From JACRDV01 sp024860865 [NCBI: Methanobacteriota archaeon] (GTDB taxonomy: Archaea; JACRDV01): a stretch of 6,723 nucleotides of DNA. The stretch lies in assembly GCA_024860865.1 (NCBI GenBank), contig JACRDV010000076.1, positions 1 through 6,723 on the forward strand, read 5' to 3'. This document shows, piece after piece, positions 311-6,621 of this stretch. The notes below the pieces were generated by a model. The model made no database searches and was not told the origin of the DNA. It saw only the letters and a list, made by a program, of their open reading frames with translations. Every line of letters begins with the position of its first letter. Positions within the stretch are counted from its first letter, which is position 1. Both the position numbers and the translations under genes were made by a program.

Positions 311-493
311 CTAACTAACTTTCATTTGTTCTAGATACTTCAGAATTCTGCCAAACTCGTCCATGATGCCTGTTATATCAGTGCACTTGGGATCAGAATG
401 AAAGGCAAGAATTAAAATTGCAGCAGTAAGTTGGCTAAGTTCTTGTTTTAAGGTGCGTTCTTTTTCCGTAAGGTCAACCTCCATTTGTTTCAC
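311..493 (-). CDS. Small hypothetical protein overlapping the DUF211 gene
   Basis: This is a 60-codon frame from a GTG at 493 to a TAG at 311; an in-frame ATG at 484 is an equally possible start. I do not recognise the product. It looks all-helical: a charged helix (about residues 7-20, EKERTLKQELSQL) running into a hydrophobic stretch TAAILILAF (23-31), a loop with one Cys (residue 37), then a second helix (about 43-58). The hydrophobic stretch is too short for a clear membrane span. The frame overlaps the 3' end of the upstream DUF211 gene (stop at 474-476) by 20 bases from GTG or 11 from ATG. Such an overlap is typical of translationally coupled genes in one transcript and is the main reason to take it as real. 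There is no Shine-Dalgarno site before the GTG. Because the upstream gene carries a nonsense codon, coupled translation may be impaired. Confidence 0.5.
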   Translation of the reverse strand: MKQMEVDLTEKERTLKQELSQLTAAILILAFHSDPKCTDITGIMDEFGRILKYLEQMKVS

Positions 494-824
494 GTTTTTC
501 TATTTCATAAATTTCTCCGGCAATAACACGTTCAACTGAACGAACTACCCCGCCTAAGTGTTCAATAGCTTGGATTAATATATCATAGTCAAGTTTCTCC
601 CCATCAACAGTAATTTTAAGCATTTCAGTTGTACGGTCTGTTTCTTATAGAGTAACATCCAGGCCTTTTACCCCGTCAATCACGCTTAATTTTTCTACTA
701 ACTCAATAATTGAAGGTTCTAATGGCTTATGGACCTCAAAAATAACCTTTCTAATCCCAATTCGAGAGTTATCTTTTTGAACATGATGAGGCAAATTAGA
801 TTCAGCATTTAATATCTTCATCAT
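474..824 (-). pseudogene. DUF211 (COG1888) family gene interrupted by an in-frame TAA
   Basis: Reading 117 codons from ATG ATG at 824/821 to TGA at 474-476 gives one continuous DUF211 protein except for a TAA at codon 60 (645-647). From codon 26 the sequence is KVIFEVHKPLEPSIIELVEK..., then GVKGLDVTL, the stop, and ETDRTTEMLKITVDG..., ending in LGGVVRSVERVIAGE. From memory of archaeal members such as MTH889 (..[25 protein letters not shown]..), the stop replaces exactly one residue, with no frameshift or gap, so a single substitution explains it. The family is small, mainly archaeal, with a ferredoxin-like fold and no firmly known function. The N-terminal ~20 residues look like a non-conserved extension. 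An ATG at 623 could restart a 49-residue C-terminal piece. It may be a recent pseudogene, a sequencing or assembly error, or (unlikely) read-through; TAA is not a pyrrolysine or selenocysteine codon. Confidence 0.75.
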
Positions 825-2571: not shown

Positions 2572-2958
2572 ATGAAAGAAGAAATTTCAGAAGTTGATAT
2601 TTTAGAGGCTGAACGCAGTTTTTTCAAACACGCGCCAGATCCAGAATTAGTTTATCGTGAGTTTATTTTCTCTACAATAGCAGAAAAGCCTAGAAGTTAT
2701 GAAGAATTGAAGGAAAGAACAAAATCTTTAGAATATTATAGTAACTGCAATATCGAAGAAAAACTTAATGAATGCTTAGATTTCTTACAAAAGCAAGGCA
2801 GAATTCAGAATACTAATAATTTATTTTATTTAACTGAAGCAGCTAGAAATCTAGAGGAAGAAAGAAAGTCGTGGATAAAACTTAATCAACAATATGAAGA
2901 AACACCACCTATCATAAAAATGGTAATACGCGCATTATCACATATTTGTGAAGAATAG
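2572..2958 (+). CDS. Winged-helix-like DNA-binding protein, uncharacterised
   Basis: This is a 128-residue acidic cytosolic protein with no signal or membrane segment. I do not recognise a specific family, but the middle follows the winged-helix pattern: helix 1 about 24-38 (PELVYREFIFSTIAE), helix 2 about 42-51 (SYEELKERT), a putative recognition helix about 60-75 (NIEEKLNECLDFLQKQ), then a wing GRIQNTNNLFYLTEAARNL at 76-94. The wing echoes the common 'YxLTexG' ending of such domains. A charged helix (about 93-108) and a short C-terminal helix after TPP (111-113) could serve for dimerisation. It is probably a transcription regulator. The start is supported by a TATA box 27 bases upstream (leaderless), and a palindrome at 2503-2519 may be its own operator. 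A counted line is only about 27% GC, lower than lysC or the hem genes. Its 3' end faces hemY, so it is not co-transcribed with the hem genes. It may still regulate them or lysC; nothing proves either. Confidence 0.8.
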   Translation: MKEEISEVDILEAERSFFKHAPDPELVYREFIFSTIAEKPRSYEELKERTKSLEYYSNCNIEEKLNECLDFLQKQGRIQNTNNLFYLTEAARNLEEERKSWIKLNQQYEETPPIIKMVIRALSHICEE

Positions 2959-3008
2959 AAGTAAGTCACTTAATCTTTGTAAATTAAACATCTAAAGGTT
3001 TGTGAGAG

Positions 3009-3026
3009 TTTATTTTTTTAATTTTT
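3009..3026 (+). terminator. U-tract terminator after the winged-helix gene
   Basis: T7 (3013-3019) and T5 (3022-3026) lie about 50 bases past the TAG at 2956-2958. On the plus strand this is a good archaeal U-tract terminator. On the opposite strand it is an A-tract and would not stop the convergent hem operon. Confidence 0.5.
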
Positions 3027-3066
3027 CCAAAATTCTCGTTGTCAGATTTTTTTAAATCAAACAGAG

Positions 3067-3082
3067 ATTCTTTCGCGAGAAT
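3067..3082 (-). terminator. Small hairpin downstream of hemY, weak terminator candidate
   Basis: ATTCT (3067-3071) pairs with AGAAT (3078-3082) around a loop containing TCGCGA, about 20 bases after the hemY stop on the minus strand. Only short T-runs follow it in that direction (TTT and GATTT), so it is a weak terminator. It is the only stem I see close to the operon's end. Confidence 0.25.
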
Positions 3083-3101
3083 AAAGTTGCTACAGCTTAA
3101 C

Positions 3102-4541
3102 CTAAAATTTCTTTTTTAAGAATTCAAAAACCCGCTCAGCGGTAAGGGTTCCGTTATGAATGCAATCAGGGATACCAACTCCACGATATCCGGCTCCTGT
3201 TATGAAGAGCCCAGAATGCTCAGCAAGTTGTTGCTCTAAAACAGCCAAGCGGTCTAGGTGTCCAATAGTATACTGGGGCATTCCCATTTCCCAACGATAA
3301 ACTTTGGTAAGAACTGGTTCAGCTTCAATACCCATTATATCTTTTAATTCGGTGCGAACCATCCTAATCATATGCTCATCATCAAGCATAGCGTATTTTT
3401 GGTGTTGTGCCCCGCCAACAAAAGCCCTCAATAGAACATAGCCTTTTGGCACTCGATAGGCCCATTTGCTCGAACTCCATGTGGTAGCCATAATCTTTCT
3501 GCTCTCTATCCGCGGAACCACGAATCCGAACCCCTTGAGAGGATGAGGGATGCTTGATTTCTCATAAGCTAATGAAACTGTCGCAGATGAGGCATAAGGA
3601 ATCGCTCTAAGCTTCTCTGCAACTGACTTATCTAGATCTTCGATTATCTCAGCCGTGACAAAAGCTGGTGTGGTAAAAATTACGGCATCTGTTTGTATTG
3701 GTCTCTCTCCTTCAATATTAACTTCATAGACTGGCTTTTGCCCATGCACTCTGGTTTTTTCCTCCACATTAAGCACTTTTTTACCCAAAAGTAGATTTTT
3801 GCTACCAATGGCCGCCGCTAAGGCATCAATAAGATCGACCATACCACCCACATAGGACACGAAGTATGTCCTCTTTGGAATTGGTGCATTTTTCATCTCA
3901 GCCTGCATTTTCTTTTTCCTTGCCAATATGGCCAGAATTAGACTTCGATGCTCTAGCTCCATTTCAATAAATCTAGGAAAGGTACTTTTAAGACTCATCT
4001 CTTCAGGATTTCCAGCGTGAATTCCAGCAACCAATGGTTCAGCAATTTTATCAAGAACCTCCTGCCCCAGCCGACGGCGGACAAAACTGGCCAAGCTCTC
4101 ATCATCTGACTCACATCGCTTTGGTATGATAAGGTCAAGAGCCATTCGAATCTTTCCTGGCCATGACATAAGACCAGTTGTAATGAAGGAAACAAAGTTT
4201 GTCGGTACCATCAATATAGTGCCCTCCGGTAGCCGGTGCAGTTTTCCGTCTGAAAAAATAAAAGTTCCGGTGTTTTCTTCGTTTGTATTGAGCAGGCGAT
4301 CCTCAATGCCGAGTTTTTTGCTAAGTTCTAGAGCCCACGGCTTCTCGGTGATGAAACAATCTGGTCCTCCTTCAATTACAAATCCATCAATCTTTTCAGT
4401 TAGAATTGTTCCACCAAAGCGGTTCTCCTTCTCGAGCACAAGGAGTTCGATCTCCATGTCTGCTTCTTTCGCTCTTTCTTTGAGGGCATATGCTGTAGCC
4501 AGACCGGAAATGCCGCCTCCAACGATTACTACATTCACCAA
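3102..4541 (-). CDS. hemY: HemY-type porphyrinogen oxidase (FAD)
   Basis: This FAD enzyme oxidises protoporphyrinogen IX to protoporphyrin IX, or, in the coproporphyrin route, coproporphyrinogen III to coproporphyrin III (then called CgoX). The sequence alone does not decide which. The 479 residues are of normal family length. The N-terminal dinucleotide fold shows GGGISG at 8-13, and E37 in LLVLEKENRFGG binds the FAD ribose. Family blocks follow: GGPDCF (58-63), AEPLVAGIHAGNPEEMSL (167-184), YVGGMVDLIDAL (230-241), GFGFVVPR (337-344), and the C-terminal FAD block GLFITGAGYRGVGIPDCIHNGTLTAE (444-469). No signal peptide or transmembrane helix is seen; the family sits at the membrane face. The start is TTG at 4541, supported by AGGAG 7 bases upstream (4549-4553); GTG at 4538 is the alternative. 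It is the third gene of hemE-hemH-hemY, 30 bases after hemH. HemY-type enzymes are bacterial and eukaryotic and unusual in archaea. Confidence 0.93.
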   Translation of the reverse strand: MVNVVIVGGGISGLATAYALKERAKEADMEIELLVLEKENRFGGTILTEKIDGFVIEGGPDCFITEKPWALELSKKLGIEDRLLNTNEENTGTFIFSDGKLHRLPEGTILMVPTNFVSFITTGLMSWPGKIRMALDLIIPKRCESDDESLASFVRRRLGQEVLDKIAEPLVAGIHAGNPEEMSLKSTFPRFIEMELEHRSLILAILARKKKMQAEMKNAPIPKRTYFVSYVGGMVDLIDALAAAIGSKNLLLGKKVLNVEEKTRVHGQKPVYEVNIEGERPIQTDAVIFTTPAFVTAEIIEDLDKSVAEKLRAIPYASSATVSLAYEKSSIPHPLKGFGFVVPRIESRKIMATTWSSSKWAYRVPKGYVLLRAFVGGAQHQKYAMLDDEHMIRMVRTELKDIMGIEAEPVLTKVYRWEMGMPQYTIGHLDRLAVLEQQLAEHSGLFITGAGYRGVGIPDCIHNGTLTAERVFEFLKKKF

Positions 4542-4548
4542 TTTTAAT

Positions 4549-4553
4549 CTCCT
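4549..4553 (-). promoter_or_regulatory. Shine-Dalgarno site deciding the hemY TTG start
   Basis: AGGAG (minus strand) is separated by 7 bases from the TTG at 4541 and by 10 from the GTG at 4538. The 7-base spacing favours TTG. Starting there places the FAD-binding GGGISG motif at residue 8, as usual for the family. Confidence 0.6.
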
Positions 4554-4571
4554 ATTTTTATCAATGTGAAA

Positions 4572-5561
4572 TTATTTTTTCTTCTGCTTTGAAAGATGCT
4601 CGTGAACAATTTGAGCTAGCGCCTCAATGAATTTCGGCGATGCATTGAGTGATGGAGTACGTCGAAATGTGATTCCTTTTGACTCCGCTTGTTGACGATA
4701 AATGATATCAATATCATAAAGAGTTTCAACATGATCAGAAACAAAACTTATCGGCACAATCAAGACATCGCGATGTCCCTCCTTGGCAAGTTTATCCAAG
4801 ACAAAATCGGTTTCTGGCTCCAACCAAGCAACTGGTCCGCTTCGACTCTGAAATGCTAGATGCCAGGAGATCGAACCAATGCGCTTTAAGACACCAGCTA
4901 TGGTTGCCTTCAACTGCTCTAAATACGGATCACCACCTTCAATGAACTCCTTTGGCACACTATGTGCGCTAAAAATCACTTGGACCTTATTGCGATGTTC
5001 ATTTGGGAATTGCGAGATTCCTTCTTCAATTTTTTCCACTAGAGCATTGATGTAGGCTTGATGATTATACCAGCTATCTATGTAGGTAATTTTAAGATCA
5101 GTCGTAAGATTAGCAAGAACTTCTTTTAGTTTTTTAAAAATCGAGCCTGTGGTCATTCTAGTAAAATGAGGAGAAAGGCTTAGAGCAACAATACATTTGA
5201 TTCCATCTCTAAGGATATCCCCTATTGTCTCTTCGATAAATGGATGCCAGTAGCGCATGGCAATATAAACTCTAAAGGGGCCATCGCCTACATTAAGCCG
5301 CCTTTCAAGGGATTGTGCCTGCTCTTTGGTAATATCGAGGAGAGGTGAGCGACTGCCAATTTTCTTGTAGCGCTCAGCTACTTCCTTTGATCGTCTTTCT
5401 GCAATAAGCCGAGCGCGGGTCTGTCCTTCCCGCTCTAAAAAAAGATTATATAGAAAGGGTTGCACTGCCTCGAGCGAATCTGGCCCACCGAAACCTAGAA
5501 GAAGAACACCAATAGTCTTTTTTAGTTCAGTAATCTTTTTACTTCCTTTCTCCAAGGGCAT
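4572..5561 (-). CDS. hemH: Ferrochelatase
   Basis: This enzyme inserts Fe2+ into protoporphyrin IX (or coproporphyrin III) in the penultimate or last step of heme synthesis. The 329 residues show the family blocks: GVLLLGFGGPDSLEAVQPFL (18-37), RYWHPF (103-108), LSPHFTRMTTGS (129-140), FSAHSVP (197-203) with the metal-handling H200, FQSRSGPVAWLEPET (237-251) and FVSDHVETLYDID (273-285) with the catalytic E279. The GGPDSLEAV..FLYNLF start resembles enzymes of proteobacterial or Nitrospira type rather than the short Bacillus coproporphyrin ferrochelatase, whose motif is AYGTP. That would suggest a protoporphyrin substrate, but this is inference. There is no C-terminal [2Fe-2S] extension; C123 is the only Cys. 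The segment between FLYNLF and IAERR appears several residues shorter than in the human enzyme, which would trim the membrane-facing lip. The start is the ATG at 5561, with only a weak purine-rich AAAGAGAAAG before it. It lies 28 bases after hemE and 30 before hemY. Confidence 0.95.
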   Translation of the reverse strand: MPLEKGSKKITELKKTIGVLLLGFGGPDSLEAVQPFLYNLFLEREGQTRARLIAERRSKEVAERYKKIGSRSPLLDITKEQAQSLERRLNVGDGPFRVYIAMRYWHPFIEETIGDILRDGIKCIVALSLSPHFTRMTTGSIFKKLKEVLANLTTDLKITYIDSWYNHQAYINALVEKIEEGISQFPNEHRNKVQVIFSAHSVPKEFIEGGDPYLEQLKATIAGVLKRIGSISWHLAFQSRSGPVAWLEPETDFVLDKLAKEGHRDVLIVPISFVSDHVETLYDIDIIYRQQAESKGITFRRTPSLNASPKFIEALAQIVHEHLSKQKKK

Positions 5562-5589
5562 CTTTCTCTTTACACATTAAATCAAAATT

Positions 5590-6621
5590 CTATCTTTTGC
5601 TATATTTATGAACGGCCTCCACCATAGCGATGACATGCTCCACTGGCGTCTGAGGCAGAACACCATGACCGAGATTAAAAATATGCCCGGGTCTACCATC
5701 AGCTCGCTTTAGAATGTCTTTCACTCTTCTTTCGATTTCTTTCGGTGGAGCTAAAAGAGCGACTGGATCAAGATTTCCCTGAATGGCTACATCATAACCG
5801 AGGCGTTTCCAGGCAACATCAAGGTCGATTCGCCAGTCGATACCAATCACGTCTCCCCCTGCTTTTTTCATAAGCTCTAGAAGCATGGCTCCGCCATTTG
5901 CATAATGGATCACTGGGACTTCATTGCCCACTCCATCGATAACCTGTTTGGTATAAGGCATCACGAACTTTTCGTAATCTCTGGGACTCAGACATCCTAT
6001 CCAAGTATCGAAGATCTGAACCGCCTGAATTCCTGCTTCGATCTGGGCAATCAGATAGAGGGTTATCACTTTAGCAATCTTCTCCATAAGCGTATGATAA
6101 GTTGATGGATCCCAAAGCATCATTTTTTTTATATGGATATAATTTCGGGAATGCCCGCCTTCAACAATGTAACTGGCCAAAGTAAACGGTGCTCCGGAAA
6201 AACCGATGAGGGGTACCTTTCCATTTAAATGCCGACGAGCTATTTTAATGGTTTCCATTACGAATGGAACTTTTTCTTTAGGATCGATGATGGATAAAGC
6301 ATCAACGCTAGCAGGATTGCGAACTGGATTGTGAATAATAGGTCCCTTACTTTCTGAGAACTCAATATTTATCCCCATGGCCTCAACAGGAAAAAGAATA
6401 TCAGAAAAAAGAATTGCAGCATCTACTCCAAGTTTCTCTACTGGTTGAATTGTAATCTCTGCCGCCAGCTCTGGGGTCTTACACATAGTTGAAAATGGGA
6501 CTTTATTACGTATTTCTTGGTATTCTTTTAAATACCGCCCCGCTTGACGCATAAGCCATACTGGAGTGCAGTCCACAGGCTGACGCTGGCAAGCCTTAAG
6601 AAATCGGTATTCGCTACCCAT
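5590..6621 (-). CDS. hemE: Uroporphyrinogen III decarboxylase
   Basis: This cytosolic enzyme removes four acetate carboxyls from uroporphyrinogen III to give coproporphyrinogen III; it uses no cofactor. The 343 residues are of family length. Diagnostic motifs are PVWLMRQAGRYLKEY (20-34, with R25 and R29), LFSDILF (71-77, D74), GFSGAPFTLASYIVEG (140-155, Y151), FDTWIG (204-209), LSPRDYEKFV (211-220, S212), QGNLDP (281-286) and FNLGHGVLP (315-323, H319). R25, D74, Y151, S212 and H319 correspond to the substrate-binding residues known from the human enzyme, so it should be active. The start is the ATG at 6621, with AGGAG 6 bases upstream (6628-6632). It is the first gene of the hem operon. It commits carbon to the copro/protoporphyrin branch; the archaeal siroheme route does not need this enzyme, which makes its presence here telling. 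Confidence 0.97.
   Translation of the reverse strand: MGSEYRFLKACQRQPVDCTPVWLMRQAGRYLKEYQEIRNKVPFSTMCKTPELAAEITIQPVEKLGVDAAILFSDILFPVEAMGINIEFSESKGPIIHNPVRNPASVDALSIIDPKEKVPFVMETIKIARRHLNGKVPLIGFSGAPFTLASYIVEGGHSRNYIHIKKMMLWDPSTYHTLMEKIAKVITLYLIAQIEAGIQAVQIFDTWIGCLSPRDYEKFVMPYTKQVIDGVGNEVPVIHYANGGAMLLELMKKAGGDVIGIDWRIDLDVAWKRLGYDVAIQGNLDPVALLAPPKEIERRVKDILKRADGRPGHIFNLGHGVLPQTPVEHVIAMVEAVHKYSKR

What the first reader, a model, noticed from the sequence alone, without database searches (positions are those of the whole stretch)
3102..6621. Bacterial-style hemE-hemH-hemY operon in an apparently archaeal chromosome
Seen: three complete, motif-intact genes in one tight minus-strand operon, beside an archaeal-type aspartate kinase, a DUF211 gene and a leaderless TATA-box promoter. 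Known: most archaea that make heme use the siroheme-dependent AhbABCD route and lack HemE, HemY and HemH; hemEHY is the Bacillus gene order. Inferred: this lineage gained the copro/protoporphyrin branch by transfer. Counted hem lines are 45-50% GC, above most of the rest of the window.
Basis: partly seen in the sequence, partly recalled or inferred. Interest (0 to 1): 0.65.

Follow-up and report, generated by a model that had tools for sequence, protein, structure and literature searches.

The report
Archaeon with a borrowed heme pathway
A little-known, probably sulfate-reducing archaeon carries three bacterial-type heme-making genes that seem to feed an archaeal-style last enzyme, a mixed route to heme that is known in outline for bacteria but that I did not find described for archaea.

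Summary
Window 3102-6621 carries intact hemE, hemH and hemY in one minus-strand operon. The window is a whole 6.7 kb contig of a 1.54 Mb archaeal draft genome, alone in its phylum among the genomes held.

The rest of the genome explains the operon. It has AhbD (coproheme to heme b) beside cytochrome c maturation genes, and DsrAB. AhbC, AhbA/B, HemQ/ChdC and HemN_C were not found. Best reading: a hybrid coproporphyrin-dependent route, HemE, HemY, HemH (giving coproheme), then AhbD.

Nineteen bacteria with the nearest HemE also have an AhbD-like protein and no AhbC, AhbA/B or HemQ; in 17 of 17 Nitrospirota loci ahbD lies just upstream of hemE. Two further archaeal families carry ahbD-hemE-hemH-hemY operons. 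HemY groups with Actinomycetota/Bacillota proteins rather than with those archaea (AU p = 6e-10).

Reviews already mention AhbD ending the coproporphyrin route "in some organisms"; eight searches of an open-licence library listed no archaeal case.

Open problems: one contig without read coverage; HemB not found; a usually O2-dependent oxidase in a likely anaerobe; substrates untested.

The parts
5590..6621 (-). hemE, uroporphyrinogen III decarboxylase (343 aa), first gene of the operon
   Evidence: TIGR01464 434.8 bits, cut-off 303; PF01208 full length; RQAGRY and FSDI motifs align with solved HemE 3cyv; 65% identity to Aquicultor HemE
4572..5561 (-). hemH, ferrochelatase (329 aa); proposed substrate coproporphyrin III, product coproheme
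   Evidence: TIGR00109 308.8 bits, cut-off 124.6; PF00762 348.6; FSAHS and SDHVETLYDID stretches align with human ferrochelatase
3102..4541 (-). hemY, flavin-dependent porphyrinogen oxidase (479 aa); proposed coproporphyrinogen III oxidase (CgoX-type)
   Evidence: TIGR00562 341.3 bits, cut-off 97.85; best solved relative 3i6d 321 bits, then 2ivd 268, human-type 3nks 130; N-terminal VVIVGGGISG motif in the translation

Best explanation
The operon supplies the middle of a hybrid, coproporphyrin-dependent heme pathway in an archaeon that probably reduces sulfate or sulfite. HemE decarboxylates uroporphyrinogen III to coproporphyrinogen III, HemY oxidises it to coproporphyrin III, HemH inserts iron to give coproheme, and AhbD, a radical-SAM enzyme encoded on another contig beside cytochrome c maturation genes, turns coproheme into heme b. 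The three genes, and perhaps AhbD, were acquired from bacteria of the Aquicultor/Bacillota/Nitrospirota kind and stand in for the siroheme segment (AhbA, AhbB, AhbC) that most heme-making archaea use. Shown: the genes, their families, the genome content found, gene neighbourhoods in relatives, tree positions. Inferred: substrates, flux, direction of transfer, that HemY works without O2 or with traces of it, and that the contig is correctly joined.
For: AhbD: 551.6 bits to TIGR04545, cut-off 500, beside CcmB and CcmE (over Pfam cut-offs), an ABC ATPase in the CcmA position and CcmC- and CcmF-like proteins (matches 91 and 290 bits, below the cut-offs 186 and 569). Its contig also has a DUF126 gene over cut-off and a phosphatase nearest to the Archaeoglobus-type model, below its cut-off. 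Not found in the same genome: AhbC (best 244 bits of 650 needed, at the AhbD place), AhbA/B (G029 rings twice), HemQ, HemN_C. Heme demand: Ccm genes and the cytochrome b DsrM, 305 bits of 300 needed. Bacteria: of 20 close HemE relatives, 19 genomes were searched (L038's was not): HemQ in 0 of 19, AhbC over cut-off in 0 of 19, AhbA/B in 0 of 19, an AhbD-like protein at 45.6-58.5% identity in 19 of 19. In 17 of 17 Nitrospirota loci ahbD lies within 500 bp upstream of hemE; in Aquicultor it reads as hemD-hemB-ahbD-hemL (only ahbD tested by family). Archaeal genomes G126, G218 and G290 have ahbD-hemE-hemH-hemY operons. HemY and AhbD trees reject one clade with the f2/f57/f77 archaea (AU p 6e-10 and 1.2e-4).
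Against: The hem genes lie on one 6.7 kb contig of a draft genome; no reads were available to rule out a chimeric join between 2958 and 3102. Tetranucleotide usage of the hem part (r 0.736) lies within the spread of 26 pieces of the genome (0.67-0.88), but so does a Bacillota locus (0.742), so it decides nothing. HemB (PF00490) was not found here although 11 of the other 12 HemE/HemH archaea searched have it; absences in a 92%-complete genome are not proof. HemL, HemC, HemD, HemF and siroheme genes were not searched. HemH matches human ferrochelatase (218 bits) better than B. subtilis-type enzymes (173 at best) (species recalled). HemY-type enzymes are described as O2-dependent (PMC10965808, passages), awkward in a Dsr organism. 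AhbD is not in the operon here. In the bacteria the picture is not uniform: HemH and HemY were seen with HemE in 9 of 24 loci; L031, L034 and L046 show neither although at least 3.6 kb follow hemE, and L035 and L040 show HemH without HemY (no whole-genome search for these was made). HemN_C is over cut-off in 17 of 19 bacterial genomes, in four of them (G065, G067, G073, G075) in frames of 460-487 aa, a HemN-like length, so a protoporphyrin route is not excluded there. Soudan_17's AhbD-like protein fits NirJ2 best (616 bits; AhbD 357).
Confidence: 0.7

Rival explanations
1. Chimeric or mis-binned contig: the hem operon belongs to a bacterium of the Aquicultor/Bacillota kind and was joined to, or binned with, archaeal DNA.
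For: G+C of the hem genes (41.9-44.0%) is above all 34 sampled genes of the genome and the codon fit is at its low edge. The change of G+C falls about the gap 2958-3102. HemE is up to 65% identical to bacterial homologues.
Against: Reported contamination is 0.73%. Without these genes the AhbD of the genome would have no known source of coproheme, since AhbC and AhbA/B are not found. Three other archaeal families hold the same enzyme types. Tetranucleotide usage is within the genome's own spread, though that test is weak. A recent transfer predicts the same shift in composition.
Confidence: 0.13
2. The archaeon has the ordinary siroheme-dependent route, with AhbA, AhbB and AhbC in the unassembled part, and the hemEHY operon is an additional, perhaps redundant, supply of coproheme.
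For: AhbD is present and over cut-off. The genome is 92% complete and HemB, usually present, is also not found, so tetrapyrrole genes may be missing from the draft. Haloferax volcanii keeps both AhbD and a ChdC (PMC5746218, abstract and passages).
Against: AhbC and AhbA/B are both unfound in this genome, in the 3 f2 genomes and in the 19 bacterial genomes searched, while G029 rings for both. Here AhbD is beside ccm genes, whereas in G029 it is next to ahbA/B.
Confidence: 0.1
3. Protoporphyrin-dependent route: HemY is a protoporphyrinogen oxidase and HemH a protoporphyrin ferrochelatase, with an unrecognised coproporphyrinogen oxidase making protoporphyrinogen IX.
For: The HemY model is named protoporphyrinogen oxidase. 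HemH scores higher against human ferrochelatase than against B. subtilis-type enzymes. HemN_C proteins of HemN-like length occur in four of the 19 bacterial relatives.
Against: No HemN_C match in this genome, while controls ring in 9 of 14. AhbD, which acts on coproheme, would be left without a role. The best solved relative of HemY is 3i6d, from B. subtilis, a coproporphyrin-route organism (recalled). HemF was not searched.
Confidence: 0.07

Closest known systems
Coproporphyrin-dependent (CPD) heme pathway of Gram-positive bacteria (HemE, CgoX/HemY, CpfC/HemH, ChdC/HemQ)
   Different: HemQ/ChdC not found in the genome; AhbD is the candidate last enzyme; archaeal host.
CPD pathway ended by AhbD in bacteria
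   Same: Apparently the same enzyme set. [quoted passage not shown] Nitrospirota loci here have ahbD-hemE, some followed by hemH and hemY.
   Different: Archaeal host; ahbD unlinked from hemEHY in this genome and beside ccm genes.
Siroheme-dependent (Ahb) heme pathway of archaea and sulfate-reducing bacteria
   Same: Shares AhbD, which acts on coproheme; in archaeon G029 AhbD also lies near a gene that reads as ccmE.
   Different: AhbC and AhbA/B not found; coproheme would come from HemE-HemY-HemH.
hemE and hemH of Thermoplasma and Picrophilus
   Same: Archaea with hemE and hemH; in 2010 the only ones among the 59 archaeal genomes surveyed (PMC3004389, passages and abstract start).
   Different: Those genomes were reported without hemG/hemY and without ahb-nir genes.

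Membership tests
CPD pathway ended by AhbD | HemE, HemY, HemH and AhbD in one genome | tested here: met
   All four over the cut-offs of TIGR01464, TIGR00562, TIGR00109 and TIGR04545
CPD pathway ended by AhbD | No AhbABC and no HemQ that could do the same work | tested here: met
   Not found in a 92%-complete genome; absence is not proof
CPD pathway ended by AhbD | Enzymes act on copro- rather than protoporphyrin substrates | not testable with these tools
   Needs assays; only indirect support from gene content
CPD pathway ended by AhbD | Early pathway to uroporphyrinogen III (HemA, L, B, C, D) | tested here: inconclusive
   HemA 212.8 bits of 209.55 needed; HemB not found; HemL, C, D not searched
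Classical CPD pathway (ChdC type) | HemQ/ChdC, PF06778 | tested here: not met
   No match in G000; controls ring in 7 of 14
Siroheme-dependent Ahb pathway | AhbC, TIGR04546 | tested here: not met
   Best 244 bits, cut-off 650, at the AhbD place; G029 scores 731
Siroheme-dependent Ahb pathway | AhbA/AhbB, PF17805 | tested here: not met
   No match in G000; two in G029
Siroheme-dependent Ahb pathway | AhbD, TIGR04545 | tested here: met
   551.6 bits, cut-off 500
Protoporphyrin-dependent pathway | O2-independent coproporphyrinogen oxidase HemN (HemN_C, PF06969) | tested here: not met
   No match in G000
Protoporphyrin-dependent pathway | O2-dependent coproporphyrinogen oxidase HemF | not tested

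The most novel reading that the evidence does not exclude
Modular exchange at coproheme: an archaeal sulfate or sulfite reducer dropped the siroheme-to-coproheme segment (AhbABC) and replaced it with a bacterial HemE-HemH-HemY operon, keeping its AhbD next to its cytochrome c machinery; other archaeal lineages made a similar exchange separately with a Nitrospirota-type ahbD-hemE-hemH-hemY operon; and HemY works in these anaerobes with an electron acceptor other than O2.
Probability: 0.4. Interest if true: 0.65.

Novelty: new variant of a known kind. Interest (0 to 1): 0.5.

Why it matters
A 2024 review lists archaea as users of the siroheme route (PMC10991733, table seen as a passage). If this reading is right, at least four archaeal families (f1, f2, f57, f77) make heme by a bacterial-type branch that meets the archaeal route at coproheme, so the two pathways can be recombined by gene transfer at that one intermediate. 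It also poses a testable question: how HemY-type oxidases, usually described as O2-dependent, work beside DsrAB and a radical-SAM heme synthase.

Tried and rejected
The radical-SAM protein beside dsrAB on C132 as AhbC: rejected; it is TIGR04053 (406 bits, cut-off 395) and 161 bits to AhbC against a cut-off of 650.

A single archaeal origin: rejected for HemY (AU p 6e-10) and AhbD (1.2e-4), not rejected for HemE (0.48) or HemH (0.07). The groups tested were named after first trees had been seen. Rows dropped, mostly long-branched: from HemE L045, L125-L127, L133-L136, L144, L145 and the duplicate L083; from HemY L129; from AhbD L072, L083, L095, L099, L130; from HemH L121, L123-L131, L133-L136, L144, L145. 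Before L129 was dropped the window sat with Soudan_17, Aquicultor and L129 at 100/100. Rows covering under 60% of the query were left out, and HemH locus L132 and genomes without a locus were not in the trees. The bacterial rows came from one scan for close HemE relatives, so the donor group is not identified, and the trees are unrooted.

Tetranucleotide usage as a chimera test: uninformative. Aspartate kinase in viral contigs: no relatives. Dailey 2015 and 2017 are not held; their statements were seen only through reviews. Aquicultor with heme biosynthesis: 0 papers.
Full report
What is in the window. The window is the whole of contig C24 (6723 bp) of a 1.54 Mb, 160-contig draft genome, 92.45% complete and 0.73% contaminated as listed. 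Three complete genes lie on the minus strand at 3102-6621: hemE, hemH and hemY, 28 and 30 bp apart. They pass the general models of their families, and key motifs of HemH and HemE align with solved structures. Beside them are an archaeal-type aspartate kinase, a 128-residue gene without a match in Pfam or NCBIfam, and a DUF211 gene broken by one in-frame stop.

Is it an archaeon. Asking for the phylum returned only this genome. All 60 relatives and all those listed are rated 'same domain'. G029, one of them, has AhbD next to AhbA/B, with AhbC elsewhere. The contig with AhbD in the window's own genome has a DUF126 gene over cut-off and a phosphatase nearest to the Archaeoglobus-type model, below its cut-off. 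I did not examine ribosomal RNA, and the lineage could not be named.

What the rest of the genome says. On contig C153 lies AhbD, 551.6 bits against a cut-off of 500, beside CcmB and CcmE (over Pfam cut-offs), an ABC ATPase in the CcmA position, and CcmC- and CcmF-like proteins below their NCBIfam cut-offs. On C132 lie DsrA, DsrB and DsrM, all over cut-off, an iron-sulfur protein that reads as DsrK, and HemA. So this is probably a sulfate or sulfite reducer that needs siroheme and heme. AhbC, AhbA/B, HemQ and HemN_C were not found, each search having controls that ring. HemB was not found either, although 11 of the other 12 archaea in that search have it. This warns that some tetrapyrrole genes may lie in the missing part. 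HemL, HemC, HemD, HemF and siroheme genes were not searched.

What bacterial relatives say. The one named-genome scan with HemE returned 24 loci: Candidatus Aquicultor (65%), Bacillota Soudan_17 (64%), Actinomycetota Kmv33 (63%), 17 Nitrospirota at 57-61%, and four distant or partial ones. Nineteen of the 20 close genomes were searched whole (not that of L038). None has HemQ, AhbC over cut-off or AhbA/B; all 19 have a radical-SAM protein 45.6-58.5% identical to the window genome's AhbD. Nine AhbD-like proteins from bacteria and archaea were scored: three pass the AhbD cut-off (Aquicultor 522, Kmv33 517, archaeon G029 567); two Nitrospirota, two f2 and one f57 protein score 437-453, below it, with AhbD still their best family; Soudan_17's is over cut-off for NirJ2 (616). 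One f77 protein scores 447. In 17 of 17 Nitrospirota loci ahbD lies upstream of hemE within 500 bp. In Aquicultor it lies in a run that reads as hemD-hemB-ahbD-hemL. This neighbourhood is the best evidence that AhbD works with HemE.

Results that blur this. HemE, HemH and HemY were found together in 9 of the 24 loci (HemY cut by the contig end in L033). L031, L034 and L046 show neither HemH nor HemY although at least 3.6 kb follow hemE, and L035 and L040 show HemH alone; these genomes were not searched whole for HemH or HemY. HemN_C is over cut-off in 17 of the 19 bacterial genomes; most frames are 240-402 aa, in the range I recall for HemW or cut short, but four (G065, G067, G073, G075) have frames of 460-487 aa, a HemN-like length.

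Other archaea. HemH is over its cut-off in 35 of 394 genomes, this one included, so the premise that archaea lack it holds for most but not all. ahbD-hemE-hemH-hemY operons occur in G126 (f57) and in G218 and G290 (f77). Family f2 has hemH-hemY pairs in several genomes; 8 of 8 f2 genomes searched have HemE over cut-off, and the three f2 genomes have an AhbD-type protein. In family f7, G006 has HemQ next to HemH instead. AhbC, AhbA/B and HemQ were not searched in f57 and f77.

Trees. In HemY the window joins Soudan_17 and Aquicultor at 100/100, and holding it with the f2/f57/f77 archaea is rejected (p 6e-10). In AhbD the window lies apart from the Nitrospirota+f2+f57+f77 group (p 1.2e-4), near Aquicultor, Kmv33 and archaeon G029 without resolution. 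HemE places the window with Nitrospirota at 95/96 in one sample and 88/88 in another but does not reject an archaeal clade (p 0.48). HemH is unresolved (p 0.07). I read this as at least two separate acquisitions by archaea; the direction is inferred, since the trees are unrooted and the bacterial sampling is narrow.

Composition. The hem genes have 41.9-44.0% G+C and third-position G+C of 35.5-39.2%, against means of 37.1% and 28.6% in 34 other genes of the genome; aspartate kinase is at 39.8%. This fits a fairly recent transfer and would also fit a chimeric contig. That the operon fills the gap before an otherwise unsupplied AhbD argues for a true member of the genome, but reads are needed.

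Literature. I read passages of eight papers and no whole paper. AhbD as last enzyme of the coproporphyrin route in some organisms is stated in PMC7242693, and colocalisation with hemY/hemH/hemQ in PMC10548856. PMC3004389 knew hemE and hemH among archaea only from Thermoplasma and Picrophilus, without hemY. PMC5746218 reports AhbD and a ChdC in Haloferax volcanii with uroD, cgoX and cpfC absent. PMC8351635 surveyed AhbABCD in methanogens and alkanotrophs. PMC10965808 describes ChdC as needing H2O2, HemY-type CgoX as O2-dependent, and an O2-independent alternative, CgoN. Eight full-text searches listed no paper whose title or abstract start describes HemE-HemY-HemH-AhbD in an archaeon; the library holds open-licence papers only.

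Verdict. Real, well supported as gene content, and likely a transferred heme branch finished by AhbD: a new variant of a known pathway, of interest mainly because it departs from the rule that archaea make heme from siroheme.

Noticed in passing
window 474-821 (-): The DUF211 gene is interrupted by an in-frame TAA at 645-647; both halves match PF02680 separately, so it is a pseudogene or an assembly error.
   Followed up: partly
window 2572-2958 (+): A 128-residue gene without Pfam or NCBIfam match, at only 30.5% G+C.
   Followed up: no
G000 (whole genome): No HemB (PF00490) match in the window's genome although it has HemA and DsrAB; missing from the draft or truly absent.
   Followed up: no
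L063 5903-7102 (+): A TIGR04053-family radical-SAM protein lies just after dsrAB and a ferredoxin; a protein that looks similar lies in G001 (L069 2777-3976). Role unknown.
   Followed up: partly
L062, L070, L067: AhbD recurs beside cytochrome c maturation genes in archaea: ccm genes in G000, a gene that reads as ccmE in G029, a CcmF-like gene below cut-off in G023.
   Followed up: partly
L053 and L125 (G006, family f7): The HemQ match lies 26 bp from the HemH match on the same strand, with HemE next to HemH: a ChdC-type coproporphyrin cluster in another archaeal family.
   Followed up: no
L144 7065-14000 (G350, family f126): A compact run that reads as hemH-hemA-hemC-hemB-hemL-hemE (HemH and HemE by blast, other labels from reading the sequence), with no ahbD or hemY seen in it.
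   Followed up: no
L030 locus / G065:C4: A HemN_C match (frame of 487 aa) lies about 240 bp from the ahbD match in this Nitrospirota genome, a possible hemN beside ahbD-hemE.
   Followed up: no
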